Source: Desulfobacterales bacterium
GTDB lineage: Bacteria > Desulfobacterota > Desulfobacteria > Desulfobacterales > JAAELO01
NCBI GenBank assembly: GCA_024226555.1
Contig: JAAELO010000783.1
Location: 1 to 34,265 of the forward strand
Direction: 5' to 3'
DNA length: 34,265 bases
Below are positions 1,949 to 29,293 of the stretch, one piece after another; within the stretch, counting starts at the first letter, position 1, and each line of letters starts with the position of its first letter. The position numbers were made by a program, and so were the translations under genes. The notes below the pieces were generated by a model, which did not search any database, was not told the origin of the DNA, and saw only the letters and a program-made list of their open reading frames with translations.

Positions 1949-3760
1949 TTATCCTCCAAAACAGCTCTCTGGTATTTCAAGGGAAGCTGAATTTCCGTAA
2001 ATAATTGTATCCATCTTTCCTTTTGCTGGTGGTAAGACATTATAAATAAAGAATTCAGCTGTTTTAATTATGCCTTCATAATAATCGGTATCCTTTTTCT
2101 TTGAACTTTCAAGTTTTTCAATGCCTACAACAGCTCTGGATAGTAGCATCCAGGCCATAACTACATCTCCTGTTGATTCCAGAAAGGAAAATGCGTGGGC
2201 AAATGCTGTTTTTCTTTCGTCAGAACCCATAGTTTTGATAAGGCAATTTACAACGCTTTCAAGTTTCTCTAATGATTCCGATAATACTGCTGATAGTTTT
2301 GAGAGCCTGTCAACACAATTTGCCTGGGCAATTGTAACATTTACTTCTTCAACAAAATATGTGAACAGTTTTCCGCCATTTATTGTTAATTTGCGTGCCA
2401 TCAGGTCAATTGCCTGAATTCCGTCAGTTCCCTCATAGATTGATGTGATTTTGCAATCTCTTAGTAGCTGTTCAATAGGGTATTCCTTAGTATAGCCATA
2501 TCCACCAAACACCTGCATCGCCTCCACACAAACATCAAAACTTCTTTGACTTGCATAACCTTTGACAATGGGTATGAAAAAATCGATTAATCCTTGTTTC
2601 TTCTGCTTCTCTTCATCATTTTTGGACTCATCTTTAATGTCAAAAAGCAGCGACACGTAATAGATTAAACTTCTCATACCATCCACATGTGATTTCATCC
2701 AAAGGAGCATCCTTCTAACATCCGGATGATTTACTATTGTAACATCCGGTGCATTTTTATCTTTTCCGGCATTCAGGTCTTTACCCTGAATTCTCTCTTT
2801 TGCATAGTTTGCAGCGTAAAGATATGCAGATGAAGCATATGTGAATGCCTGAAAACCTACATTAAATCTTGCTTCATTCATCATATGGAACATGACCAGC
2901 ATTCCTTGATTTTCTTCACCAAGAAGTAATCCCCTGCATTCCCCTTTTCCACCTAATGCCATGCTACATGTCGCACTGCTGTGAATGCCGAGTTTCTCTT
3001 CAACTCCTGTACACACAACATCATTTGGCTTATTAAATGATCCATCATCTTCGACCCATATTTTGGGAACAATAAAAATTGAAATTCCTTTTGTTCCTGG
3101 AGGTGCTCCTTCAACACGTGCAAGAACAGGGTGGATAATATTTTCACTCAGATCATGTTCACCATTTGTGATGAAAATTTTGTTGCCTGTAATGGTATAA
3201 GTACCATCGGGGTTTTTTCTGGCTGTTGTCGTTAGTGCACCCACATCAGAGCCTGCATTAGCTTCTGTTAAAAGCATTGTGCCGCCCCACTCACCGGTAT
3301 ATAGCTTTTTAAGGAATAGTTCTTTCTGCTCAGATGTTCCGAACAGTTCAATCATTTTACCGGTTCCGTGTCCCATGGTACCGTAATTTGCAAGACAGTA
3401 ATTAGCTCCCCACAGATATTCAAAAGCTGCTGTATTTACAACATTTGGTAAACCTTGTCCTCCATATTCCGGGCTTTCAACCATGGAGGTCCATTCTCCG
3501 TTTAAAAAAATCTGGTAAGGCCTGTGAAAACATTCAGGTACACTGACCTGACCATTTTCAAAGGTTACACCATCTCTGTCTCCTTCGGCATTTGCGGGCA
3601 GAAACTCCTTAATAGCCAGTTGTCTTGCTTCTTTAATGATCATATTAAACACTTTTTTGTTATAATCACTAAATCTTTCATAGTTTGATAGCTTTTCAAC
3701 ATTAAGCTGTTCATAAAGTACAAAATCGATATCTCTTCTGTCTGCTACTATTTGAGCCAT
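1949..3760 (-). CDS. Acyl-CoA dehydrogenase, ~600-aa class (ACAD1)
   Basis: 603 aa, an FAD enzyme that introduces the alpha-beta double bond into an acyl-CoA. The length and the N-terminal AQIVADRRDIDFVLYEQL segment fit the long class with an extra N-terminal domain and a C-terminal extension, the class that includes DmdC-type dehydrogenases. Landmarks are the FAD/substrate stretch LLTEANAGSDVGALTT, GNKIFITNGEHD, the QVFGGYGYTKEYP motif and the probable catalytic base E443 in SIYEGTDGIQA. It is clearly a paralog of the gene at 9943. The SD is GGGGGTG before an ATG. A sigma-54-like promoter and a palindromic enhancer candidate lie upstream, next to the activator gene that precedes it. The acyl chain it acts on cannot be read from the sequence. 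Butyryl or 4-carbon chemistry is suggested only by the dehydratase-like neighbour. Confidence 0.92.
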   Translation of the reverse strand: MAQIVADRRDIDFVLYEQLNVEKLSNYERFSDYNKKVFNMIIKEARQLAIKEFLPANAEGDRDGVTFENGQVSVPECFHRPYQIFLNGEWTSMVESPEYGGQGLPNVVNTAAFEYLWGANYCLANYGTMGHGTGKMIELFGTSEQKELFLKKLYTGEWGGTMLLTEANAGSDVGALTTTARKNPDGTYTITGNKIFITNGEHDLSENIIHPVLARVEGAPPGTKGISIFIVPKIWVEDDGSFNKPNDVVCTGVEEKLGIHSSATCSMALGGKGECRGLLLGEENQGMLVMFHMMNEARFNVGFQAFTYASSAYLYAANYAKERIQGKDLNAGKDKNAPDVTIVNHPDVRRMLLWMKSHVDGMRSLIYYVSLLFDIKDESKNDEEKQKKQGLIDFFIPIVKGYASQRSFDVCVEAMQVFGGYGYTKEYPIEQLLRDCKITSIYEGTDGIQAIDLMARKLTINGGKLFTYFVEEVNVTIAQANCVDRLSKLSAVLSESLEKLESVVNCLIKTMGSDERKTAFAHAFSFLESTGDVVMAWMLLSRAVVGIEKLESSKKKDTDYYEGIIKTAEFFIYNVLPPAKGKMDTIIYGNSASLEIPESCFGG

Positions 3761-9942: not shown

Positions 9943-11787
9943 ATGGCACAATTAATAGCAGACAAGAGAGATATTGATTTTGTACTTTATGAGCAAATGG
10001 ATTGTGAATCGTTACTTTCCTACCCGGAGTTTGAGGAATTTAATAAAAAAATGTTTGATATGGTTGTTAAGGAAGCAAGAAAATTTTCCTTGAAAGAGAT
10101 CCTGCCTACTTATGCAGAAGGTGATAGAGAAGGCGTGGTTTTTGAAAATGGTAATGTAAAAGTTCCCAAATGTTTTCATAAACTATACGAAATGTATACA
10201 GAGGGAGAGTGGCTTGCTCTAGTTGAAGATCCGGAATTTGGTGGACAGGGGTTGCCTCACCTTATAGCACAGGCCGCTTTTGAATATATAGTTGGATCAA
10301 ACTACACTTTTGCCATGTATGGAATACTTGCAAAAGGTGCTGGAAAAATGGTTGAACTTTTTGGTACAGATCAACAGAAAGAACTATTCCTTAAAAATAT
10401 TTATACAGGTGTCTGGGGAAGCACAATGCTTCTAACTGAGCCAGAGGCAGGATCTGACTTAGGCGCTCTTACAACAACTGCAATTAAAAATGATGATGGA
10501 ACATACTCTCTAAAAGGTAGTAAAATATTCATTTCAAACGGAGAGCAGGATATAACAGATAATATTGTCCACCCTGTTTTAGCAAGGATTGAAGGAGCTC
10601 CAGAGGGCACCAAAGGGATCTCTATCTTTATAGTCCCCAAAATTTGGGTTAATGAGGATGGAAGCTTCGGTGATCATAACAATATTGTTTGTACAGGTGT
10701 TGAAGAGAAAATGGGGCTACATGCAAGCCCAACCTGTAGTATGAGTCTTGGTGATAAAGGAATGTGTCGTGGTCTGTTGCTTGGTGAAGAGAACAAAGGT
10801 ATGGAGATTATGTTTCACATGATGAACGATGTGAGACTTGAAGTTGGCCTTCAGGCTATGACCCATGCATCTTCAGCATATTTATATGCTCTTGAGTACG
10901 CGAAAGAGAGAAAACAGGGTAGAGAACTTGGTTCAAGAGAACAAAGTCAGGTAACAATTTTAGGTCATCCCGATGTAAGGCGTATGATGATCGATATGAA
11001 AGCTTATGTTGATGGAATGAGAAGTTTCATTTACTACACAGCTTCCTGTATTGATAATGCACATTGTACAAAAAATGAGGATGAAAAAGTCAGATTCAGT
11101 GGAATGGTAGAGCTTCTTACACCTATTGTTAAAACCTATTGCAGTGAAAAAGGTTTTGACGTGTGTGTTAATGCAATGCAGGTTTTTGGTGGTTATGGAT
11201 ATACTAAAGAGTATCCGGTTGAGCAGATATTAAGGGATTGTAAGATCACTTCCATCTATGAAGGTAGTAATGGTATCCAGGCCATGGATTTTCTTGGTAG
11301 AAAACTTGGTTTGAATAAAGGAGTTGTTTTCACTGAGTTTATTAATGAGATAAACAGCACAATTAATAAAGCTATGGAAATAGATGATCTGAAAGATTTA
11401 GCTGTAAAACTTTCAGGAACTGTTACAAAACTATCAGAAACAATCGTTAATCTTGGAAAAACCGCAGGTTCAAAGGACTTCAAAACAGGCTTCTTCTTCG
11501 CCCATCCAATGCTTATGGCAACAGGAGATGTTATAATGGCGTGGATGCACCTCTGGAGAGCGGTTGTTGCAATTCCTGCTATTGAGAAAGTAACAAAATC
11601 AAAATATAGTGATATAGATCCAGCTAACTTTTTAAAAAATAAGAACTTTGCTTTTTATGATGGTCAGATAAAAACAGCGGAATATTTTATTACTACGATG
11701 CTTCCTGTAACTGAAGGGAAATTAAAATCTATAGATGCAAGTAACGATAGTGCTTTAAAAATTGGAGAAAATGCATTTGCATCATAA
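9943..11787 (+). CDS. Acyl-CoA dehydrogenase, ~600-aa class (ACAD2)
   Basis: 614 aa, a paralog of the gene at 1949-3760 with near-parallel sequence from AQLIADKRDIDFVLYEQ through LLTEPEAGSDLGALTT and QVFGGYGYTKEYP. The probable catalytic base is E440 in SIYEGSNGIQA. It differs in the 460-560 region, with a short insertion near the C-terminus (SKYSDIDPANFLKNKNF), so substrate preference may differ. The SD AAGGGG is about 12 nt before the ATG. It lies downstream of the TetR gene, with a repeat copy in between, and upstream of a decayed sigma-54 activator fragment, which suggests this locus once had the same gene partner as ACAD1. No sigma-54 promoter was found here. Confidence 0.92.
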   Translation: MAQLIADKRDIDFVLYEQMDCESLLSYPEFEEFNKKMFDMVVKEARKFSLKEILPTYAEGDREGVVFENGNVKVPKCFHKLYEMYTEGEWLALVEDPEFGGQGLPHLIAQAAFEYIVGSNYTFAMYGILAKGAGKMVELFGTDQQKELFLKNIYTGVWGSTMLLTEPEAGSDLGALTTTAIKNDDGTYSLKGSKIFISNGEQDITDNIVHPVLARIEGAPEGTKGISIFIVPKIWVNEDGSFGDHNNIVCTGVEEKMGLHASPTCSMSLGDKGMCRGLLLGEENKGMEIMFHMMNDVRLEVGLQAMTHASSAYLYALEYAKERKQGRELGSREQSQVTILGHPDVRRMMIDMKAYVDGMRSFIYYTASCIDNAHCTKNEDEKVRFSGMVELLTPIVKTYCSEKGFDVCVNAMQVFGGYGYTKEYPVEQILRDCKITSIYEGSNGIQAMDFLGRKLGLNKGVVFTEFINEINSTINKAMEIDDLKDLAVKLSGTVTKLSETIVNLGKTAGSKDFKTGFFFAHPMLMATGDVIMAWMHLWRAVVAIPAIEKVTKSKYSDIDPANFLKNKNFAFYDGQIKTAEYFITTMLPVTEGKLKSIDASNDSALKIGENAFAS

Positions 11788-15321: not shown

Positions 15322-16569
15322 TTATTTAATATTTTGAACAGCAGAATAAGCTGACGCTATCGCAACCCCGGATCCGCATTTCAATCTTTTCCAATCATTG
15401 CCTGAAAGAATAGATCCGGCAGCATAAAGGTTCTTATCTACTATTTTCCCATTTTCATCTATAGGATTAAAAGAAGTGTTGGTTTTAATGCCGGCAAGAT
15501 TGATCTCATGAGGATCGAAAAAATTTCCTGAATGCCAGTTTACTCTTTCTCCAGGTTGGTTTACATTAAGATCAAATACTGTTTCAACGATACCCTTTCT
15601 CTTGGCAGAAAGTCCTTTACCAATAAATCTGCCTGTTGCAAGAAGTACATTTGAAGGTTTTATAACAGCTTTATTATTCTCATGATTTGCATCAAACGAG
15701 TTATCTTTATTCCTGGTCAAAATATAATTGTTAAGAAATGTTATTCCATTTTCATGTAGTATTTTGTGAAAAACTTCTTTAAGTCTCAGGCCTGTTATTG
15801 ATGGTGGTATTACAGGAATTTCAAACAGTTTAACAGATAGTCTTTTCTCAAGATCCTTTAAAAGGTAAGATGAATTATGAATCCCTAAAACTGCTGGTAA
15901 TCCAACATACTCATAATCTTTAACAAGTGGCTCAAGTAGAGTTACAAAAGTATCTCTGTTTTTTTCAGTTTGCAAAAATCTGGCAACAGTTTCACTATAA
16001 ATACTACTCATATGATCAAAATATGGAATCCTTACAGTAGCACTTTCAAGACCTTTCCAGTTTTTTTGTAGTACCTGTTTGATCATCTCTGAACTAAATC
16101 CTCTTAATCGTTCCAGCCCGATGATGATACAGGATGATTTATTTTCAAATGCAATCCTGTTGTTCTCCATGGTTTCAGGATAACAATAAGTAGATTTGGT
16201 ATGCCCAAGGGGGGTTATAATTCTGCTGTTTTTTCCGTTACATCTATATTGTAGCCCAGCATCACCAAAATAAGTCATTATTTTTTTAAGGGATTTTTCA
16301 ATGTCCCCATTATCAATAAATGAATATGGATGCTCACTATCACTCTTTTTAATTTCGTTTATTAATGCCCATGGATCATCATGTATTTTTTTGTCATCAA
16401 CAGGGAACGAACTAATAAGGTCAATTAAACCGGAACTGTAGAGCGTTTCTCCAGTTTTTCCTGCGATTACTGTTTTTAAACCAAGTTCGTTGGCAAAAAG
16501 AGCTGCTGAAACACCTGTCATTCCAGCCCCTATAATTAAAAGATCACATTCACTATCATTTTTATTCAT
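15322..16569 (-). CDS. glpB: Anaerobic glycerol-3-phosphate dehydrogenase subunit B
   Basis: 415 aa, near the 419 aa of E. coli GlpB. The N-terminal Rossmann motif LLIIGAGMTGVSAALFANELG binds FAD/FMN. Other landmarks are SSGLIDLISSFPV, TPLGHTKSTYCYPE and LLATGRFIGKGL. The C-terminal NLYAAGSILSGNDW/KRLKCGSGVAIASAYSA is typical of the family. In E. coli GlpB mediates electron flow from GlpA to the GlpC iron-sulfur membrane subunit and menaquinone. It starts 12 bp after the glpA stop, so the two are co-transcribed. No glpC follows; the next gene is an unrelated solute-binding protein after 131 bp. Confidence 0.9.
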   Translation of the reverse strand: MNKNDSECDLLIIGAGMTGVSAALFANELGLKTVIAGKTGETLYSSGLIDLISSFPVDDKKIHDDPWALINEIKKSDSEHPYSFIDNGDIEKSLKKIMTYFGDAGLQYRCNGKNSRIITPLGHTKSTYCYPETMENNRIAFENKSSCIIIGLERLRGFSSEMIKQVLQKNWKGLESATVRIPYFDHMSSIYSETVARFLQTEKNRDTFVTLLEPLVKDYEYVGLPAVLGIHNSSYLLKDLEKRLSVKLFEIPVIPPSITGLRLKEVFHKILHENGITFLNNYILTRNKDNSFDANHENNKAVIKPSNVLLATGRFIGKGLSAKRKGIVETVFDLNVNQPGERVNWHSGNFFDPHEINLAGIKTNTSFNPIDENGKIVDKNLYAAGSILSGNDWKRLKCGSGVAIASAYSAVQNIK

Positions 16570-16581
16570 ATTATAAACTCT

Positions 16582-18123
16582 TTATTCCAATTCTGTTCCA
16601 AGAAAACCACAGTGCAATGCTTCCATTAGTTCTGCCTGTACCATTGCCTGATCCCATAGTAATGGATGGAGCCCTTTCCACCTCTCATTTAGAAGAAGCT
16701 TCAAATCGCTCAATCCCTCATCACCCTTAAAGACACCTTTATCATACATATAGGATAATATTCTAAGACTGCAAAACATACCCTGACAAGGGCCTTTGGT
16801 CGCTCTGCTTCTTAAACCCATTGCTACTAAATATGAATCCCCTGCATGGTCTTCAAGTGTTTCTATAAGAGAATCAACAACACTTTTAGATACCATTTCA
16901 CATTCACACAGAAGTGGATCATTAACATCATTGTTTAATAACCACTGCTTTGCAGAATATCCAGGTTTAATAAATTTTGCAGTAGGACTGTCAGGAAGAG
17001 GCATATCCATTGTTGTGCATTTTTTATTTATACCAAGTTTTTTACATGCAAGATCCACAGCTTTTTCAGCCATTAGTCTGAAAGTAGTAAGTTTTCCACC
17101 TGTTATAGTGATAAAATTTCCTACAGTTCCTTCATGATCCACCACTGAAAAACTTCTTCCAATCATTCTGTCACTGCCAGCGTTCTCAGTTTTTATTAAT
17201 GGTCTGACACCTGAATAAACACGTATAAGTCTCGATTTTTTTAAAACCGGGATGAGCTTTGCTGCTTCATCAACAATTTTATCTACCTCTTCAACTCTTG
17301 GATAAGCTTCATCGGGAGAATCTATTCTTTCAGATGTAGTTCCAATAATTGAGACTGTCCCACCGGGAACAATAATATCTGAATCATCAGGTATTCTTAG
17401 TCTGTTTAATACCATATTGGAAAGTCTCGTTTGAGTAACAATCAGACTTCCCTTTGAAAACACCATATCTATATCAATACCAGCCATTCTTGTAATCATA
17501 ACAGCCCATGAACCAGTAGCATTTATCACTATTTCAGGCTCTATATCTTCTGTTTTTCCGCCTTTAGTCTGCACAGTAGCTGATACTATTTTCTTATTTT
17601 CTATTTTGAATGATTTTAACTCATATCCGGTTAGAAATTTTGCACCATTGTTTTTAGCATCGGACATATTCTCAATTGAAAGCCTGAACGGGTCAATGGA
17701 TGCATCTTCAACTTTGTATGCAGCAATTGTATCTTTTGAAAGATTAGGTTCAAGAGCAAGTGCCTCTTCAACAGTTAATCTTTCAGCACTAATACCGCAT
17801 TTATCACACATTTCCTGAAAGTCTTCTATGAATGTAGGATCATCACCCTTTACAGCTGCATAAATACCACCAGTATCTTCAATGATATGGGGAGCAATTC
17901 TCTTTAGTATTGTTCCTTCTTCTTTGCATTCTGCTGCAGATACAGGATCTGAGTAAACATATCTTGCTCCACTATGTAAAAGACCATGGTTTCTACCAGA
18001 TGCTCCTGAATCAATATCACCCTTTTCAACAAGAACACATGGAATTCCTCTTAAAGCAAGGTCTCTGGCAACACCAGTCCCAGTTGCTCCGCCACCTATT
18101 ACAAGTACTTTAGTTTTAATCAA
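16582..18123 (-). CDS. glpA: Anaerobic glycerol-3-phosphate dehydrogenase subunit A
   Basis: 513 aa. The N-terminal FAD motif KVLVIGGGATGTGVARDLALRG and ASGRNHGLLHSGARYV are typical of GlpA/GlpD; NFITITGGKLTTFRLMAE closes the DAO domain. The C-terminal about 100 residues form a BFD-like [2Fe-2S] module with CxC (LCECEM) and, later, C-x4-C (GPCQGMFC). This module separates GlpA from the aerobic GlpD. It oxidises sn-glycerol-3-phosphate to dihydroxyacetone phosphate. The start is TTG with GGAG 6 nt upstream. It is the first gene of glpAB, with about 800 bp of gene-free sequence upstream. It is about 30 residues shorter than E. coli GlpA. Confidence 0.93.
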   Translation of the reverse strand: MIKTKVLVIGGGATGTGVARDLALRGIPCVLVEKGDIDSGASGRNHGLLHSGARYVYSDPVSAAECKEEGTILKRIAPHIIEDTGGIYAAVKGDDPTFIEDFQEMCDKCGISAERLTVEEALALEPNLSKDTIAAYKVEDASIDPFRLSIENMSDAKNNGAKFLTGYELKSFKIENKKIVSATVQTKGGKTEDIEPEIVINATGSWAVMITRMAGIDIDMVFSKGSLIVTQTRLSNMVLNRLRIPDDSDIIVPGGTVSIIGTTSERIDSPDEAYPRVEEVDKIVDEAAKLIPVLKKSRLIRVYSGVRPLIKTENAGSDRMIGRSFSVVDHEGTVGNFITITGGKLTTFRLMAEKAVDLACKKLGINKKCTTMDMPLPDSPTAKFIKPGYSAKQWLLNNDVNDPLLCECEMVSKSVVDSLIETLEDHAGDSYLVAMGLRSRATKGPCQGMFCSLRILSYMYDKGVFKGDEGLSDLKLLLNERWKGLHPLLWDQAMVQAELMEALHCGFLGTELE

Positions 18124-22421: not shown

Positions 22422-22898
22422 ATGAGAATTGGAAAGGGTTTCGATATTCACAAACTTGTAGATGGCCGAAAACTAATTCTGGGGGGAGTAGAAATTCCAT
22501 TTGAGAAAGGTTTATTAGGTCATTCCGATGCAGATGTTCTTGTGCATGCTATTTGCGATGCAATACTTGGAGCTGCGGGAGAGGGGGATATTGGTGTTCA
22601 TTTTCCTGATACAGACCCAAAATTCAAGAATGCAAATAGTCTTAATCTTTTGAAAATTTCATGTGATAAGGTAAGATCTAAAGGATATTCAATTGTTAAT
22701 ATAGACTCTACTGTTTTTGCAGAGAAACCTAAATTATTACAATATAAAGATGCTATGAGAAAAAATATAGCTGAGTCAGCAGGTATTGATACTTCAGACA
22801 TTAATGTTAAAGCAACTACTTTTGAAGGGCTTGGAGCAATAGGAAATGGTGAGGGAATTGGGGCTGAATCAGTTGTTTTATTAAAGCATAGTTTTTAA
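22422..22898 (+). CDS. ispF: 2-C-methyl-D-erythritol 2,4-cyclodiphosphate synthase
   Basis: 158 aa, the normal length. It forms the cyclic diphosphate in the MEP pathway to isoprenoids. Conserved features are GFDIHKL near the start (Asp and His metal ligands), LGHSDADVLVHAICDAILGA, GDIGVHFPDTDP and the C-terminal KATTFEGLGAIGNGEGIGAESVVLL. It is the first gene of an apparent operon, 49 bp ahead of cysS, and divergent from the HD-GYP gene. The AAGGA upstream is about 15 nt from the ATG, farther than usual. Confidence 0.96.
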   Translation: MRIGKGFDIHKLVDGRKLILGGVEIPFEKGLLGHSDADVLVHAICDAILGAAGEGDIGVHFPDTDPKFKNANSLNLLKISCDKVRSKGYSIVNIDSTVFAEKPKLLQYKDAMRKNIAESAGIDTSDINVKATTFEGLGAIGNGEGIGAESVVLLKHSF

Positions 22899-22946
22899 AC
22901 ACCTGGAATATATGAATTACAAATAACACAGTAACTGGAAAAGAAG

Positions 22947-24371
22947 ATGACATTAAGAATTTACAATACGTTAAAAGGAACTAAGGAAGAATTCAAACCG
23001 ATCGAAGAAGGGAAAGTCAAAATATATATATGTGGACCTACTGTTTATGATTCATGTCATATTGGTCATGGTAGAGCTGTTGTGGTATTTGATGTTATAG
23101 TTCGATATCTTGAAACTATAGGTTATGATGTTACTTACATAAGAAATTTTACAGATGTTGATGATAAAATCATTAACCGTGGAAATGAAACAGGTATGCA
23201 TTTTCTTGAGGTTAGTGAAAAATACATCAAAGAGTTCCATGAAGATATGGATGCTTTAAATGTTAGAAGAGCTACAAGAGAACCAAGAGCCACAGAACAT
23301 ATCGATGATATTATCGATATTGTACAGTTATTGATAGATAAAGATAAGGCTTATGCCGTGGATGGTGATGTATATTTTAGCGTTGATTCATTTAAAGATT
23401 ATGGAAAGCTATCCGGGCGCAATGTTGAAGATATGAAAGCAGGAGCAAGAATTGATATCGATGATAGAAAAAAAAATCCGGCTGACTTTGCTTTGTGGAA
23501 ATCGGCAAAACCGGAAGAGCCTTTCTGGGATAGCCCATGGGGTAAAGGAAGACCAGGATGGCATATTGAATGCTCTGCTATGAGTTACAGATTTCTTGGC
23601 GAAACCTTCGATATACATGGTGGTGGAAAGGATCTTATATTCCCACACCATGAGAATGAGATTGCACAATCAGAAGCAGCTTTTGATAAAGAATTTGCGA
23701 AATACTGGATCCATAATGGTTTTGTAAATATAAACAAAGAAAAAATGTCCAAATCTCTGGGAAATTTTTTAACTATCAAAAAAGTTTTAAAGGAGTATCA
23801 TCCGGAAGCAGTAAGAATGTTTCTTCTGTCAAACCATTATAGAAGTCCAGTCGATTTCTCTGAGTCATCTATGGCTGAAGCCAGTGCGGCTCTTGAAAGG
23901 GTTTACACTACTTTATTAAGGGGTGAAGAGATATTTGGACAACTATCTGTAACAGAGGAGACTGGTGAGCTTTGGAAAAATTTCAAAACATCAATGGATG
24001 ATGATTTTAATACTGCCCAGGCTATTGGAACTCTCTTCGAGGTTCTTAGAAAGATGAACCGTACTCTTGATAAAAACAGAGATGAAATTTCAGATGATGT
24101 TAAGAGTGATATACAAAAAACAGTATCAGACATATTAAAAATTGGAGATGTTCTTGGTTTATTTACAACTAAACCATCCGATTATTTTGAATCAAGAAAA
24201 TCAGCAAGTTCTGTTGATGAAGTAGAAGTTGAAGCTTTGATAAAGGAAAGAAGAGAGGCAAGAGCCTCTAAGGATTTTGCAAGAGCTGATGCAATTCGTG
24301 ATGAACTTGATGCAATGAATATTGTAATAGAAGATAAAGCTGATAAAACTGTATGGAAAGTAAAAAGTTAG
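22947..24371 (+). CDS. cysS: Cysteinyl-tRNA synthetase
   Basis: 474 aa, full length. Class I signatures: HIGH in SCHIGHGRAVVVFD and KMSKS in NKEKMSKSLGNF. The zinc site is visible as the first Cys in YICGPTVYD, the Cys in GWHIECSAMS, and the His pair in FPHHENEIAQSEA. The C-terminal anticodon-binding region ends VEDKADKTVWKVKS. The SD region GGAAAAG is close to the ATG. The next gene starts inside its last codons (19-nt overlap), so the four genes from ispF to the ATPase look co-transcribed. Confidence 0.97.
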   Translation: MTLRIYNTLKGTKEEFKPIEEGKVKIYICGPTVYDSCHIGHGRAVVVFDVIVRYLETIGYDVTYIRNFTDVDDKIINRGNETGMHFLEVSEKYIKEFHEDMDALNVRRATREPRATEHIDDIIDIVQLLIDKDKAYAVDGDVYFSVDSFKDYGKLSGRNVEDMKAGARIDIDDRKKNPADFALWKSAKPEEPFWDSPWGKGRPGWHIECSAMSYRFLGETFDIHGGGKDLIFPHHENEIAQSEAAFDKEFAKYWIHNGFVNINKEKMSKSLGNFLTIKKVLKEYHPEAVRMFLLSNHYRSPVDFSESSMAEASAALERVYTTLLRGEEIFGQLSVTEETGELWKNFKTSMDDDFNTAQAIGTLFEVLRKMNRTLDKNRDEISDDVKSDIQKTVSDILKIGDVLGLFTTKPSDYFESRKSASSVDEVEVEALIKERREARASKDFARADAIRDELDAMNIVIEDKADKTVWKVKS

Positions 24372-25048
24372 AAATTAAATCCATAAAAACTGATTTTGAA
24401 GTCTCTGTTTTAAACTTATTAAATGCAGAAGGCAGGGACTTCTTAACTGTTACTAAAATCAAAAACAAATTACCTCTTAATATTCTTAAAAGCCTTAGTC
24501 TAAAAAGAACATCCAATAACTCTGCTTTTATAAAAAAAACAAAAACATTTTTAAATGGAAAATTAAGTTATTACCGAAGCAGATATTCATATATTGGTCT
24601 TAATATCAATGATGAGGATCTGATTTGTAATTTTCTTGTAGAAAAAGAGTTATCAGTAAAAAAAACCGTTAGTCTGCTTCCCTTAACCAAAAGGAATTTT
24701 GTAAAAGCTCTCAATAAACTGATAAATGATAACAGCATTTATATCTATCTAAATAAAGATTTTCAAACTTTTATTGGATTAGTTAAATGTGATATCATTA
24801 AAGATGAAGATATATTTGAGAATATTTGTAAAGGAGAAGATAGAAGCTATATAAGAATACACAGCTTAAGAGAGAAATGTTCATGGGATAAAGAGCGTTT
24901 TGACAATGTTGTGAATAAATTTTCAAACGATGGTAAAGTTCAACTACTTGGAGGGGATCCTTCTGAGCTTTCAGAAACTGAGATACAAAACTCGTATGTT
25001 GATAGTAAAGGACGTCTAAGAATAATGTTAACATGGAGAAACCAATGA
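24353..25048 (+). CDS. Unknown protein, likely winged-helix partner of the ATPase
   Basis: 231 aa. I do not recognise a named family. The C-terminal 65 residues (IRIHSLREKCSWDKERFDNVV, then GKVQLLGGDPSELSETEIQ, then SKGRLRIMLTW) have the helix-helix-helix-wing layout of a winged HTH, of the sort often found in proteins encoded beside large P-loop ATPases. The first 150 residues are helical and lysine-rich, with a possible second wHTH (SVKKTVSLLPLTKRNFVKALNKL). There is no catalytic motif, membrane segment or signal. The ATG lies in the end of cysS, with no good SD, implying coupled translation. Its TGA stop overlaps the ATG of the next gene as ATGA, a strong sign that the two products work together. 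Confidence 0.7.
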   Translation: MESKKLEIKSIKTDFEVSVLNLLNAEGRDFLTVTKIKNKLPLNILKSLSLKRTSNNSAFIKKTKTFLNGKLSYYRSRYSYIGLNINDEDLICNFLVEKELSVKKTVSLLPLTKRNFVKALNKLINDNSIYIYLNKDFQTFIGLVKCDIIKDEDIFENICKGEDRSYIRIHSLREKCSWDKERFDNVVNKFSNDGKVQLLGGDPSELSETEIQNSYVDSKGRLRIMLTWRNQ

Positions 25049-26853
25049 GTACTTCTGATAAAAGATTAGATATTTTAAAGAAGAGAAATCCTTTCATATC
25101 TTCAAGCACTGGCGATCCCTGGGATAATTACCCTCATGTTGACTCAATAAACAAAAGACCATATCAGGGTCTTTGTTCTCTGATCGAACAGAAAAAAACC
25201 TGTAATTCTGGTGGATATGCAGGTCTCTTGCTTGGTGAAGTTGGAAGTGGAAAGACACATCTCATAAGTAGAATTCAAAAAAAAAGTCTTAATGGTACTT
25301 CTTTCTCATTTGCATATATAGAACCATTTGAAGATGCTGATATGATATATAGGTATCTGCTTCGCGAAATCATAGTTAACCTTGTAAGGCCACAAAAACA
25401 AAACTCCAGTAAAACCTATTTGCATAAGCTTGTTGCACGGATCTATATAGAGATGTTTCAAACCAAAACCACTGGTGATAAATACAAAGAATTATTAAGC
25501 AACCTAAAAAAAGATCCCACATCAATATTTGATCAGGATATTCCACAGGATGTTTTTGAAATGATTGAAAAACATGCTTATGAATATATAGCTGGTGAGT
25601 GCCCCGACATTTCATCTGAATTTCTTAAAGTACTTTTCCAGTTTAGAATTCCTGAAAAAAAGCCAGCGGTTCTTAACTGGTTAAAGGGTGATATTATTGA
25701 TGTGGAAGATGCCGAAAAGATAGGTGTCAGAGATAGAATGTTACATGATCCTGAAAAAGGTTATCTTGAACAGGAAGCCCGTTACATATTAAAATATATA
25801 GACATTCTGCTGGCACGATATCAGGAATCTCTTGTTGTTTGTTTTGACAGACTTGAAAATTTAGATTCCCAGAAGCAAATTGATGCTCTGGGTAAAATAA
25901 TTGAATATATCGTAGATACTTCTAAGTCTATGATTCCAATTGTATGCTTTCGAGGTCAACAATGGGAGGAAAAATTTAAATTAAAACTTAATCAGCACAT
26001 TACTACAAGACTTGAAAACAATAAATTTGAACTTGAAGGGTGTGATTGTGACCAGGCATTGAAAATTATAAAACTCAGGCTTGAGTCTGTTCTTGGTGAA
26101 GACTGTGACGGGTTTTTCCCATTTGAAGAGAAGGTTTTGAGAAAACTATTTGGAAGAACCATAGAAAGCCCAAGAGAGATTATAACACAAGCAAATCATT
26201 TGTTAAGGAATGTTCTGGAACTTGGTATTAAAAAGAAGAATATTACCCCACCTGACAAACTTTTAAGAGAGTTTACCATTCTTTTAAAGCATATTGAAAA
26301 AAATATTGATAGTTATAACCCAGACAGAGGAAGATTGTTAAGAGCTGTTGATATTGTTATTAATGCCGGATTGGGTGTTGATTATCCTGATATAAAAAAA
26401 GAGATAAATGAAAAAGACCAATTGGTAATATATACATTAGGCAATAAAACAACAGCTATTTTAGTAAACCTTGAACTTCATCACAATTCAGTTGGTAATT
26501 TATTAAGATCAGGAATAAATTTTTTGAAAAATTCAAAGGATTCAAAACTGTTCTATATCAGAGATTTAAGAAACCAATTTCCATCACCACCTAAATGGGT
26601 AGCTACAAATAAGAAATTGGATGATTTAAAAAGTTGTGGTGGGGAAGTGTTATTTTTAGATAATAAAGAAGTCTCAAAATGGTATGCTCTTGCTCTTCTG
26701 AGCTATGCTGTGAAAGAAGGTGATACAATTGTTGCAGATCCAATAAATGGGATTCGTTCAATTACGCATATCGAATTTAATAATTTTGTTAAGAGTTACC
26801 TTGAAAACTATGACAAATCTTTTTTTAATGATATCAAGGAAAGTCTGATTTAA
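25045..26853 (+). CDS. Large P-loop (AAA+/ORC-like) ATPase of unknown function
   Basis: 602 aa from the ATG at 25045, which has GGAG 6 nt upstream and an ATGA overlap with the previous gene. The ATG at 25033 is less likely. The N-terminus has NPFISSSTGDPWDNYPHVDSIN, then Walker A GEVGSGKT (64-71). Walker B is ESLVVCFDRLEN with D268, and IPIVCFRGQQWEEKF follows as a sensor-like strand. A helical C-terminal lid (GRTIESPREIITQANHLL) fits the ORC/Cdc6-STAND side of AAA+ proteins. The last 170 residues are an additional alpha/beta domain (QLVIYTLGNKTTAILVNLEL, LFYIRDLRNQFPSPPKW, GGEVLFLDNKEVSKW); a degenerate nuclease fold is possible but no catalytic set is clear. A role in DNA-related conflict or repair is a guess from architecture. 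Confidence 0.75.
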   Translation: MSTSDKRLDILKKRNPFISSSTGDPWDNYPHVDSINKRPYQGLCSLIEQKKTCNSGGYAGLLLGEVGSGKTHLISRIQKKSLNGTSFSFAYIEPFEDADMIYRYLLREIIVNLVRPQKQNSSKTYLHKLVARIYIEMFQTKTTGDKYKELLSNLKKDPTSIFDQDIPQDVFEMIEKHAYEYIAGECPDISSEFLKVLFQFRIPEKKPAVLNWLKGDIIDVEDAEKIGVRDRMLHDPEKGYLEQEARYILKYIDILLARYQESLVVCFDRLENLDSQKQIDALGKIIEYIVDTSKSMIPIVCFRGQQWEEKFKLKLNQHITTRLENNKFELEGCDCDQALKIIKLRLESVLGEDCDGFFPFEEKVLRKLFGRTIESPREIITQANHLLRNVLELGIKKKNITPPDKLLREFTILLKHIEKNIDSYNPDRGRLLRAVDIVINAGLGVDYPDIKKEINEKDQLVIYTLGNKTTAILVNLELHHNSVGNLLRSGINFLKNSKDSKLFYIRDLRNQFPSPPKWVATNKKLDDLKSCGGEVLFLDNKEVSKWYALALLSYAVKEGDTIVADPINGIRSITHIEFNNFVKSYLENYDKSFFNDIKESLI

Positions 26854-27136
26854 TTAAGATTTTCTGATTAATTTCATTCTATAATAGAATTTATTAATTA
26901 TTAGGTATTCGAACAACTTTTCAAATCTTTTGTTAACCTTTCAATCGGATTGAAAATTATTCTTGTATCGTTTGGTTAAATTTCATAAATATGATTATAA
27001 CTATGTATTTTTTAAAACGTTGAAATTTAACATTATCAAAAGGGTAAATAAAACTTCATTTTTATTTAAGAAGCACTCAATAAAGCTTCGCTTTATTTAA
27101 GACGATAAGAGGTAAAAGTTATCAAAGGAGGCACAT
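26854..27136. other. Intergenic region after the ATPase gene
   Basis: AT-rich and without a gene. Contents: a possible worn repeat end near 26893 (TTAATTATTAGGTATTC), a hairpin AATAAAGC-TTC-GCTTTATT at about 27079-27097, and a perfect SD-like AAAGGAGG at 27124-27131 just before the palindrome. Confidence 0.5.
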
Positions 27137-27160
27137 AAAAAACCAAATATTTGGTTTTTT
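27137..27160. terminator. Perfect 24-bp palindrome, bidirectional terminator candidate
   Basis: Six A, CC, AAATATTT, GG, six T: a perfect palindrome that folds to a 10-bp stem with a 4-nt loop, with a U run on the 3' arm in either direction. It can end the ispF-cysS-ATPase transcript. It also lies between an SD-like GGAGG and the ATG of a small ORF. Confidence 0.6.
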
Positions 27161-27167
27161 ATTCAGT

Positions 27168-27281
27168 ATGTCTAAAAAAAATAATAACACAAAAACAAAC
27201 ATAAAGTTTTTTATATTTTTTCTTATAACCGCTTTATTGATATACTTAAAACTTTCCGGTTACTTGCCATCTCTTTATTAA
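27168..27281 (+). CDS. Possible 37-aa single-pass membrane peptide before uvrB
   Basis: MSKKNNNTKTNIKFF followed by a hydrophobic run (IFFLITALLIYLKL) and SGYLPSLY, then TAA 17 bp before uvrB. The basic N-terminus plus one membrane segment is a credible small membrane protein. There is no SD at the normal distance. A perfect AAAGGAGG lies 36 nt upstream with a hairpin between, so folding could bring it close. AT bias alone could create such a frame. Confidence 0.4.
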   Translation: MSKKNNNTKTNIKFFIFFLITALLIYLKLSGYLPSLY

Positions 27282-27298
27282 AATATCAGGATTAAATT

Positions 27299-29293
27299 AT
27301 GGATTTCAAATTAGTTTCAAACTACAAGCCAACGGGTGATCAGCCCAAAGCTATAAAATATTTAAGTGAAGGTCTTCTAAAAGGTGAAGAAAACCAGATT
27401 CTTTTGGGAGTTACTGGTTCAGGAAAAACTTTCACAGTTGCAAATGTGATTGAAAAAATTAATAAGCCAGCTCTAATTATGGCACCCAATAAGACCCTGG
27501 CAGCTCAGCTATATCAAGAGTTCAAACAATTATTCCCCGAAAATGCTGTGGAGTATTTTGTTAGTTATTACGATTACTATCAACCTGAGGCATATATTCC
27601 AACAAGCGATACATATATTCAGAAAGATTCATCAATAAACGAAATGATTGAGAGAATGAGACATTCCGCAACACGATCTGTTTTAACAAGAGATGATGTA
27701 ATTGTTGTGGCAAGTGTTTCATGTATTTATGGTTTGGGGTCTCCTGAAGATTATCTTGCTTTAAGGGTTGAAATAAAAAATGGTATGGAGTTAAGCAGGG
27801 AGAAGCTTTTATCCGATCTTGTTGCTATTCAGTATGAAAGAAACGATATGGATTTTCACAGGGGTGCTTTCAGGGTAAGAGGAGATAGGGTTGAAATTTT
27901 CCCTGCCTACGAAGACAGCATGGGTATTAGAATTGAGTTTTTCGGAGATACTGTTGATAATATTGTTGAAATAGATCCATTACGAGGAACTGTAAGAAGA
28001 AAGTTAAAATCAACAGCCTTGTTTCCTGCAACCCATTATGTAACGGAAAAAGGAACACGAAAAAGAGCAATTGAAACGATAACAAAAGAGTTAAAAGAGA
28101 GAATTGAATTCCTGAGAAATGAGAACAGGTTACTTGAAGCCCAGAGAATTGAAGAGAGAACTGACTACGATCTTGAAATGATAAGGGAAATTGGCTATTG
28201 TAACGGTATCGAAAACTATAGTGCTCATCTCACCGGGAGAGCAAAAGGTGAAGCCCCTCCTACACTTCTCGAATATTTTCCCGATGACTTCTTAACATTT
28301 ATTGATGAAAGCCATATCGCAATCCCTCAAATAAGAGCTATGTACAAAGGGGATAGATCAAGAAAAACCACACTCGTTGAGTTTGGATTCAGACTACCTA
28401 CAGCACTTGATAACAGACCTCTACAGTTTAAGGAATTTACTGAAAAAACCTCAAGAGTTGTTTATGTTTCTGCAACCCCTGCAGATTATGAAATTGAAAA
28501 ATCTCATAATACAATAGTTGAACAGATTGTAAGGCCAACAGGACTTCTTGATCCTGTTATAACTGTGAGAAAAGCTGAAAATCAGGTAGATGACCTTTAT
28601 GATGAAATATCAAAAAGGTGTGCGATTAATGAACGTGTTCTAGTTACCACATTAACCAAACGAATGGCAGAGGATCTTACCGATTATTACACCGATCTTG
28701 GGGTTAAGGTAAAATATCTCCATTCAGATGTTAAAACTCTTGAGAGAATAGAGATAATTCAGGAACTAAGGCAGGGTGTTTTTGATGTTCTTGTGGGAAT
28801 TAATCTTCTGCGGGAGGGGCTTGATATTCCAGAAGTATCACTCGTTGCAATTTTGGATACAGACAAGGAAGGTTTTTTAAGGTCCCAAAGATCATTGGTG
28901 CAAATCTGTGGTAGAGCAGCAAGAAATTCAAAAGGAAAGGTTATAATGTACGCCGATAAAATAACAGCATCAATGGATTATGCTATCAGAGAAACCAAAA
29001 GAAGGCGTAAAATACAGGAAAATTATAATAGAAAACATAAAATCACACCTACTACTATTCAAAAAGAGATTATTTCATCGGTATTTGATATCAATACCAA
29101 GGATTTTGAGCTTGATAAAACTTCTACCGGAATTTCAGAAACCATTAAGGATTATGAAACTCCTGGTAACCTTCCAGAAATAATAAAGAATCTTGAAATA
29201 GAGATGGAAAAAGCAGCCCTTGACCTTGCTTTTGAAAAAGCTGCAGAATTGAGAGATAAGATTAAAGAATTAAAAAAGATAAGTGGCCTTTAA
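27299..29293 (+). CDS. uvrB: UvrABC excinuclease subunit B
   Basis: 664 aa, the full usual length. It loads onto damaged DNA from UvrA and positions UvrC for nucleotide excision repair. Walker A is [10 protein letters not shown]. The damage-wedging beta-hairpin region reads [12 protein letters not shown]. The helicase motifs [38 protein letters not shown]-like and QICGRAARN are present. A C-terminal UVR domain ([27 protein letters not shown]) contacts UvrC. AGGA lies 8 nt before the ATG. A hairpin terminator follows the stop after 11 bp. No LexA-type box was recognised upstream. Confidence 0.97.

What the first reader, a model, noticed from the sequence alone, without database searches (positions are those of the whole stretch)
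24353..26853. Unrecognised two-gene module: wHTH-like protein plus large P-loop ATPase, coupled to cysS
A 231-aa protein with a C-terminal wHTH-like segment is joined by an ATGA overlap to a 602-aa ATPase with Walker A, Walker B and an extra C-terminal alpha/beta domain. Similar wHTH-ATPase pairs occur in defence and DNA-maintenance systems. Here, however, the pair is translationally tied to ispF-cysS and followed by uvrB, which could mean a conserved core function rather than a mobile island.
Basis: inference. Interest (0 to 1): 0.65.

Follow-up and report, generated by a model that had tools for sequence, protein, structure and literature searches.

The report
Cdc6-like defence core without its effector
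Two overlapping bacterial genes encode a DNA-binding protein and a Cdc6-like ATPase that in related bacteria are often followed by a DNA-cutting motor or a caspase-like protease, probably to fight invading DNA; here the pair sits inside a housekeeping operon and has no such partner beside it.

Summary
In detail: a 231-aa protein gene (24353-25048) overlaps a 602/606-aa ATPase gene (to 26853). The small protein is modelled as three tandem winged helices; the ATPase as a Cdc6/ORC-like AAA+ domain plus a restriction-endonuclease-like domain lacking the catalytic lysine. Pfam, NCBIfam and PADLOC do not name the pair. Of 42 homologous ATPase genes, 38 have the winged-helix gene directly upstream. 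Downstream lie a PD-(D/E)XK nuclease-FtsK translocase or the translocase alone (14 of 42), a caspase-like protease (9), or neither, some cut by contig ends (19, the window included). The nuclease form fits the published 'HerA/FtsK capture' anti-invader systems; I found no paper on the caspase form in the searches made. The cysS link is not conserved: 20 of 29 relatives examined have uvrB soon after cysS and none has the module there, so it looks inserted. Best reading: the DNA-recognition core of an anti-invader system, kept without its usual effector; one such two-gene pair in relatives is under purifying selection. Defence is inferred from gene context and untested.

The parts
24353..25048 (+). 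triple winged-helix protein gene (231 aa); partner of the ATPase
   Evidence: ORF; AF2 model pLDDT 92.9 with three helix/wing units; homologous to the gene upstream of 37 of 41 other ATPase genes
24356..24601 (+). winged helix 1 (residues 2-83)
   Evidence: secondary structure of AF2 model
24608..24790 (+). winged helix 2 (residues 86-146)
   Evidence: VIA-align Z 10.5 to 3pqk_B, 60 residues, 1.2 A
24803..25045 (+). winged helix 3 (residues 151-231), the most conserved part; also found as short separate genes in relatives
25033..26853 (+). Cdc6/ORC-like AAA+ ATPase gene (606 aa; 602 aa from ATG 25045)
25234..25257 (+). Walker A, GEVGSGKT (residues 68-75)
25846..25857 (+). Walker B acidic pair D272...E275
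   Evidence: D272 invariant, E275 nearly invariant over 36 aligned homologues
26320..26808 (+). restriction-endonuclease-like domain (residues 430-592), probably inactive
   Evidence: topology in AF2 model; no (D/E)xK, window reads N479-L-E481; weak Foldseek match to EcoT38I 7e8r, E 0.023, region not shown
22422..24371 (+). host operon genes ispF (22422-22898) and cysS (22947-24371) upstream; context, not part of the module
26854..27298 (.). 445-bp gap before uvrB; no trace of an effector gene found; AT-rich hairpin with T-run at 27137-27160
27299..29293 (+). uvrB; follows cysS within 12-788 bases in 20 of 29 relatives examined; context

Best explanation
The pair is the DNA-recognition and switch core of an anti-invader system of the Orc/CDC6 'HerA/FtsK capture' kind. 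Proposed working: the triple winged-helix protein binds duplex DNA; the Cdc6-like ATPase assembles with it on DNA in an ATP-dependent way, with its dead endonuclease-like domain as a docking or DNA-holding surface; the assembled complex licenses an effector. In relatives the effector is a nuclease-translocase or a caspase-like protease. In the window the effector slot is empty and the pair appears to have been inserted between cysS and uvrB. It most likely acts alone, as a DNA-bound block or regulator, or with an unlinked effector. Shown: the two genes, their folds as models, the pairing, the alternative third genes, the absence of the module at cysS in the relatives examined. Inferred: DNA binding, assembly, effector licensing, defence, direction of the insertion.
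For: Fold: the ATPase model (pLDDT 88.3, pTM 0.89) matches Cdc6/ORC best (1fnn Z 15.4 over 249 residues; also TnsC, RdrA and BrxC). The partner is modelled as a triple winged helix. Pairing: 38 of 42. Third genes: 14 of 42 carry the nuclease-FtsK family: 8 complete genes, 3 cut by a contig end (L084, L097, L101), 1 in pieces (L098), 2 with only the FtsK part, fused to the ATPase (L070, L089). 9 of 42 carry a caspase on the same strand 3-248 bases on, with His81 and Cys138 invariant in 9 of 9. The nuclease keeps a D...(D/E)xK core and four invariant cysteines in the 9 complete proteins aligned (8 of the above plus L100). Defence genes lie beside some copies: an SfiI-type restriction-modification pair in Desulfonema magnum, an AriA/PD-T4-4-like gene in L069/L104, a ZorD/DpdE-like helicase in L097. 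Patchy spread: 23 of 389 genomes of the order. The two-gene pair of G010 and G183 shows dN/dS of 0.14 (ATPase) and 0.21 (wHTH); in those genomes the nuclease-FtsK search matched only FtsK parts and the caspase search only partial, distant hits.
Against: I know of no phage or defence experiment for this family. No defence gene was recognised among ten other window proteins scanned, and the own genome gave neither a nuclease-FtsK protein nor a close caspase. The endonuclease-like fold rests on topology and one weak Foldseek hit; profile searches of that domain found nothing. No member was found in phages with the window ATPase or in viral contigs with the first alignment; a relative's ATPase gave 3 weak, partial plasmid hits. 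Selection on the window's own copy could not be measured for lack of a close relative. Close caspases also stand alone in other genomes.
Confidence: 0.6

Rival explanations
1. Decaying remnant: a three-gene defence system lost its effector after insertion and the two remaining genes are on the way out.
For: No effector nearby or recognised in the genome; window D-to-N change in the endonuclease-like domain; AT-rich gap of 445 bp before uvrB; the C-terminal extension present in 12 of 12 unfused nuclease-linked ATPases is missing.
Against: Both frames are intact with Walker motifs conserved; no effector remnant found in the gap; clean two-gene pairs recur (10 of 42, the window included), and one pair shared by two related genomes is under purifying selection.
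Confidence: 0.25
2. Conserved housekeeping function linked to cysteinyl-tRNA synthetase or UvrB.
For: 19-base overlap with cysS and position before uvrB in this genome.
Against: Absent within 1.5 kb after cysS in 29 of 29 relatives examined, 20 of which have uvrB there; patchy distribution (23 of 389); different neighbours elsewhere.
Confidence: 0.04
3. Mobile-element part: a TnsC/MuB-like or replication-initiator ATPase with its DNA-binding partner.
For: TnsC and MuB are among the structural matches; the family is patchy.
Against: No transposase, integrase or replication gene was recognised beside the window pair in the genes looked at; no phage or viral-contig hit and only weak plasmid hits; relatives carry nuclease or protease genes instead.
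Confidence: 0.08

Closest known systems
Orc/CDC6-linked 'HerA/FtsK capture' anti-invader systems (Rakesh, Aravind, Krishnan 2024, PMC10853773; section 22 read in full, passages elsewhere)
   Same: Orc/CDC6-clade ATPase with an endonuclease-like domain after the AAA+ core, a separate protein of several winged helices, and in relatives an active-looking endonuclease plus an FtsK translocase with an FtsK-alpha domain
   Different: The window lacks the FtsK/HerA protein, the active endonuclease and the C-terminal winged helix; some relatives carry a caspase instead, a word with 0 occurrences in that paper's main text (its supplements were not open to me)
DndFGH and SspH (HerA/FtsK-containing restriction components)
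   Same: The third protein of a relative matches PADLOC SspH at 3.4e-60 through its FtsK part; the paper relates triple winged-helix proteins to DndG and SspB
   Different: No Dnd or Ssp match among the 12 window proteins scanned with PADLOC
BREX BrxC and BREX-related capture systems (PMC12839542, passages read)
   Same: Orc/Cdc6-like AAA+ fold; BrxC 9zdx at Z 11.7; BrxC_BrxD profile matches 3 of 36 members at E up to 0.01
   Different: No PglZ or other Brx match among the 12 window proteins scanned; BrxC scores below Cdc6
DUF4297-HerA two-component defence (PMC11291478, abstract and outline seen)
   Same: Nuclease plus HerA-type motor as joint effectors, like the nuclease-translocase of the three-gene relatives
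   Different: No Cdc6-like ATPase or triple winged-helix protein in the abstract
KAP NTPases (Pfam PF07693)
   Same: Window ATPase passes the Pfam cut-off (25.7 against 20 bits)
   Different: 14 of 36 members match at E up to 0.01 against 33 of 36 for AAA_16; structure favours Cdc6

Membership tests
Orc/CDC6 HerA/FtsK capture system | Orc/CDC6-clade AAA+ ATPase | tested here: met
   AF2 model best matched by Cdc6/ORC chains, Z 15.4, 249 residues, 3.6 A; Foldseek 1fnn E 7.7e-5
Orc/CDC6 HerA/FtsK capture system | inactive restriction-endonuclease domain after the AAA+ core | tested here: inconclusive
   Topology fits; EcoT38I at E 0.023, region not shown; no catalytic lysine; profile searches blank
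Orc/CDC6 HerA/FtsK capture system | C-terminal winged helix after that domain | tested here: not met
   Window ends 14 residues after residue 592; an extension of 85-124 residues is present in 12 of 12 unfused nuclease-linked relatives; its winged-helix nature is judged by eye
Orc/CDC6 HerA/FtsK capture system | companion protein of 2-4 winged helices (present in a subset, per the paper) | tested here: met
   Three winged helices in the model, upstream in 38 of 42
Orc/CDC6 HerA/FtsK capture system | HerA/FtsK translocase gene | tested here: not met
   uvrB follows; the own genome gave two FtsK-like proteins on other contigs, one read by eye as a cellular-type FtsK and one as an integrative-element FtsK. 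A gene or fusion of this family accompanies 14 of 42 relatives
Orc/CDC6 HerA/FtsK capture system | active restriction endonuclease | tested here: not met
   None next to the window pair; nuclease part present in 12 of the 14 such relatives
KAP NTPase | Pfam KAP_NTPase score above cut-off | tested here: met
   25.7 bits against 20
KAP NTPase | membrane-spanning insert in the P-loop domain (recalled) | not tested
   No transmembrane prediction was run
BREX | BrxC-type ATPase with PglZ and partners | tested here: not met
   No PglZ or Brx match among the two module proteins and ten other window proteins scanned with PADLOC; remaining window proteins were not scanned with it

The most novel reading that the evidence does not exclude
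A Cdc6-like ATPase with a triple winged-helix sensor is a general DNA-sensing chassis, centred on Desulfobacterota, whose effector can be exchanged: nuclease-translocase, caspase-like protease or restriction-modification pair. The caspase form would be a prokaryotic, DNA-triggered analogue of the apoptosome built on an Orc/Cdc6 ATPase, and the effectorless window form would act alone as a DNA block or through an unlinked partner.
Probability: 0.35. Interest if true: 0.75.

Novelty: new variant of a known kind. Interest (0 to 1): 0.5.

Why it matters
If the reading holds, one Cdc6-like switch can be wired to cutting DNA or to caspase-like proteolysis. That would link the origin-recognition ATPase clade to programmed cell death in bacteria and give a system of three genes in which sensor, switch and effector can be tested separately. 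The effectorless form asks whether such a sensor-switch pair can protect a cell by itself.

Tried and rejected
Conserved cysS coupling: rejected by the 29 relatives. Phage or viral origin: no hit with the window ATPase in phages or with alignment A1 in viral contigs. Plasmids were searched only with a relative's ATPase (L029) and gave 3 weak hits over 37% of the query. Remnant of an effector in the gap before uvrB: best E 0.45, taken as chance. Flanking direct repeats of an insertion: only 8-base matches, not tested statistically. RNA or tRNA genes in the window: none at the thresholds used. A shared profile between the ATPase's C-terminal domain and the nuclease of the third gene: none (hhalign probability 0.3%). 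A profile match of that domain to solved structures: one chance-level hit, E 0.84. Pfam RE_EcoO109I matched 1 of 36 members at 0.006 but was not among the families listed when 30 members' domains were scanned alone, so I do not use it. No restriction endonuclease is among the 50 VIA rows shown; that list is filled by AAA+ matches. For the small protein Foldseek's best hits were UFL1/DDRGK1 chains (E 9.9e-6, TM 0.25), tandem winged-helix proteins by recall, not taken as kin. A single-protein scan of genome contigs found nothing; the alignment scan found 35 loci. A caspase in the own genome: one distant, secreted-looking frame on contig C819, set aside. The caspase is not exclusive to the module: of 14 full-length close copies 5 are not adjacent to it (G145, G075, G120, G059, G022). 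For G022 my gene caller missed the caspase, so only its search row was seen.

Limits of the counts. In the 42-gene count two rows of L104 identical to L069 were dropped, and L077 was missed by my gene caller; L077 has the wHTH gene upstream and is in the tree but not in the 42. Of the 19 with neither nuclease-FtsK nor caspase, 5 are cut by a contig end (L073, L081, L093, L102, L103), one has a restriction-modification pair (L086 first copy), one lies in a cluster without its own upstream wHTH (L069 first copy), one lacks the wHTH (L072), one is split with its nuclease-translocase about 2 kb on (L100), and 10 are clean two-gene pairs. The caspase profile A7 was built from the nine module-adjacent caspases, so the genome enrichment computed with it leans towards the association. 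The genome search scored only the best few candidates of each genome (5, 3).
Full report
What is there. The window is the whole of one contig (G000:C782) of a 7.7-Mb draft genome. Relatives named in another collection are mostly Desulfobacterales and related Deltaproteobacteria, so the host is probably one too (inference). At 24353-25048 an ATG inside the last 19 bases of cysS opens a 231-aa frame. Its TGA overlaps the ATG of the ATPase frame ending at 26853 (602 aa from 25045, 606 aa from 25033). ispF, cysS and uvrB pass their NCBIfam cut-offs. uvrB starts 445 bases after the ATPase gene. The gap holds an AT-rich hairpin with a T-run at 27137-27160 and no recognisable trace of another gene.

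Profiles. Pfam gives only generic P-loop matches for the ATPase: KAP_NTPase 8.4e-6, above its cut-off, and AAA_22 2e-5, just below it. NCBIfam and PADLOC give nothing credible for either protein, and the small protein has no Pfam match above cut-off.

Structure. AlphaFold2 on alignments of window and the search for related loci proteins gave confident models. The 231-aa protein has three helix-and-wing units, pLDDT 92.9, pTM 0.64. The ATPase has pLDDT 88.3, pTM 0.89. The middle unit of the small protein matches MarR/ArsR-type winged helices (Z about 10 over about 60 residues). The ATPase matches Cdc6/ORC proteins best: Foldseek 1fnn E 7.7e-5, the only hit below 0.001; VIA Z 15.4, 249 aligned residues in the range 13-576, 3.6 A, with further ORC chains, TnsC, RdrA (13.4) and BrxC (11.7) below it. 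Residues 430-592 have the helix, three strands, helix, strand, helix, strand order of a restriction-endonuclease fold. EcoT38I is Foldseek rank 12 at E 0.023, without the aligned region shown, too weak to rest on alone. The usual lysine of motif II is missing in the 40 aligned members; most read D-x-E, the window N-x-E. I read this as an inactive endonuclease domain (inference).

Relatives. Close ATPase relatives (E below 1e-70) occur in 23 of 389 genomes of the order, the own included. 35 named loci were fetched, among them records named SAR324, Planctomycetota, Synergistaceae, Magnetococcales and methanogenic archaea, mostly metagenome bins. At E up to 1e-30, 6 of 395 genomes sampled over the phylum match, the own included. 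No match was found in phage records with the window ATPase or in viral contigs.

Pairing and third genes. Among 42 distinct ATPase genes, 38 have the winged-helix gene directly upstream on the same strand, 31 of them overlapping by 4-26 bases; two more have only a short winged-helix gene downstream and two have none. 14 of 42 carry the nuclease-FtsK family: 8 complete genes, 3 cut by a contig end, 1 in pieces, and 2 (L070, L089) with only the FtsK part, fused to the ATPase. The nuclease part is Cas4/RecB-like PD-(D/E)XK; the nine complete proteins aligned keep four invariant cysteines, as in iron-sulphur nucleases (that comparison is recalled). Nine of 42 carry a caspase-family protease 3-248 bases on (Pfam Peptidase_C14 3e-35 and PG_binding_1 3e-15 for the one scanned); the His and Cys taken as the catalytic pair are invariant in 9 of 9. 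Of the other 19, 5 are cut by contig ends, 10 are clean two-gene pairs with the window among them, and 4 are special cases. One of these is Desulfonema magnum's first copy, followed 39 bases on by an SfiI-type endonuclease and a DNA methylase.

Evolution. On the tree of 40 ATPases (quick method, midpoint root for drawing only, 16 of 37 inner branches open), nuclease-linked forms lie in most of the deep branches. A 13-row group with SH-aLRT 99 holds 8 of the 9 caspase-linked forms and 5 with no effector; the ninth caspase form groups with a nuclease form. The window row lies outside it, unresolved. A C-terminal extension of 85-137 residues, which looks like a further winged helix (by eye), is present in 12 of 12 unfused nuclease-linked ATPases, 1 of 9 caspase-linked, 3 of 14 with none and 0 of 3 cut ones; the window lacks it. 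I infer that this piece docks the nuclease-translocase. Full-length close caspases occur in 14 of 389 genomes; 11 of these also carry the close ATPase, against 23 of 389 overall (Fisher p 7e-13; not corrected for relatedness, and the profile was built from module-adjacent caspases). Nine of the 14 are adjacent to it. In G075 and G059 the caspase lies on another contig than the ATPase, so action at a distance is possible; three carriers have no close ATPase.

Selection. The two-gene pair of G010 and G183 lies beside the same sigma-32-like gene in both genomes. dN/dS is 0.14 for the ATPase and 0.21 for the winged-helix protein, with dS of 1.35-1.5, near saturation. In both genomes the nuclease-FtsK search matched only FtsK parts and the caspase search only distant, partial hits. 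So at least one two-gene form is kept by selection without the usual effectors. The same could not be tested for the window.

The cysS link. cysS was sought in the own genome and 57 relatives; the loci of the best 29 relatives were examined. uvrB follows cysS on the same strand within 12 to 788 bases in 20 of the 29, and the module is after cysS in none; about 1,500 bases after cysS were visible. The module is most simply an insertion into an older ispF-cysS-uvrB row. The overlap with cysS is local, not a conserved link.

Defence context. Among ten other window proteins scanned with PADLOC only sigma-54-type regulator matches came up, which I take as generic. Elsewhere some copies sit with defence-type genes: L069/L104 hold three ATPases with an AriA/PD-T4-4-like ATPase gene and a weakly HEC-02B-like gene between the nuclease and the caspase form; L097 has a ZorD/DpdE-like helicase; L086 the SfiI pair; L089 an FRG-domain and a PP2C gene. 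These loci were chosen for a look, not sampled; other neighbours scanned (L070, L071, L080) gave nothing of the kind, so no enrichment is claimed.

What is known. Section 22 of PMC10853773 (read in full) describes mobile neighbourhoods with an Orc/CDC6 ATPase, an inactive endonuclease domain between the AAA+ core and a C-terminal winged helix, an active endonuclease, a HerA/FtsK protein (one class with FtsK-alpha) and in a subset a protein of 2-4 winged helices. The three-gene relatives fit that description well. 'Caspase' has 0 occurrences in that paper's main text and, by the search listing, in PMC12839542. Searches for caspase with Cdc6, HerA, FtsK, antiphage and related terms listed 32 rows in all (1 of 2 papers, 15 of 63, 5 of 5, 11 of 12; some papers recur), and none of the titles or abstract starts shown describes a caspase with this ATPase. 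PMC7159879 and PMC8195603 (passages) join caspases to other AAA+ or STAND systems. Subscription journals and supplements were not searchable. The window itself lacks three features of the capture system, so I call it derived from, not a full member of, that kind.

Verdict. New variant of a known kind. The pair is most likely the sensing and switching core of an anti-invader system that has parted from its effector, now in a housekeeping operon. The caspase exchange in its relatives is the part most worth following.

Noticed in passing
L086:2205-12042: Desulfonema magnum carries two copies in a row: one followed by an SfiI-type restriction-modification pair, one followed by a caspase.
   Followed up: partly
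L104:2027-16465 (same contig as L069): Three ATPase copies in one cluster: one with only a short winged-helix gene downstream, a nuclease-translocase form and a caspase form, with an AriA/PD-T4-4-like ATPase gene and a partner between the last two.
   Followed up: partly
L070:8998-12018 and L089:5095-8136: ATPase fused directly to the FtsK translocase without the nuclease part.
   Followed up: partly
L021:189-572, L026:2141-2509, L030:2461-2760: Short separate genes matching only the third winged helix lie next to the module in several relatives.
   Followed up: no
L021:4406, L028:10985, L030:355, L157:5436: The module in three families lies near the same sigma-32-like gene, and in a fourth the stand-alone caspase lies near a gene that looks the same by eye, suggesting a shared chromosomal site.
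   Followed up: partly
L100:8297-14704: In a Methanomicrobiales bin the ATPase is split into two frames and an IS66 transposase gene separates it from the nuclease-translocase.
   Followed up: no
L033, L117-L122: More distant ATPase relatives exist in the order (E about 1e-28 and weaker); at least L033 has its own PD-(D/E)XK-FtsK gene next to it.
   Followed up: partly
window 27137-27160: AT-rich perfect hairpin with a T-run between the ATPase gene and uvrB, perhaps a terminator, in which case uvrB is transcribed separately.
   Followed up: no
L031:1703-2322 and window 15322-18123: Relatives of the same two genes (GlpB and an FAD oxidoreductase) lie some kilobases from the module both in the window and in genome G038.
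   Followed up: no
window 1949-3760 and 9943-11787: Two paralogous acyl-CoA-dehydrogenase-like genes lie about 6 kb apart on opposite strands.
   Followed up: no
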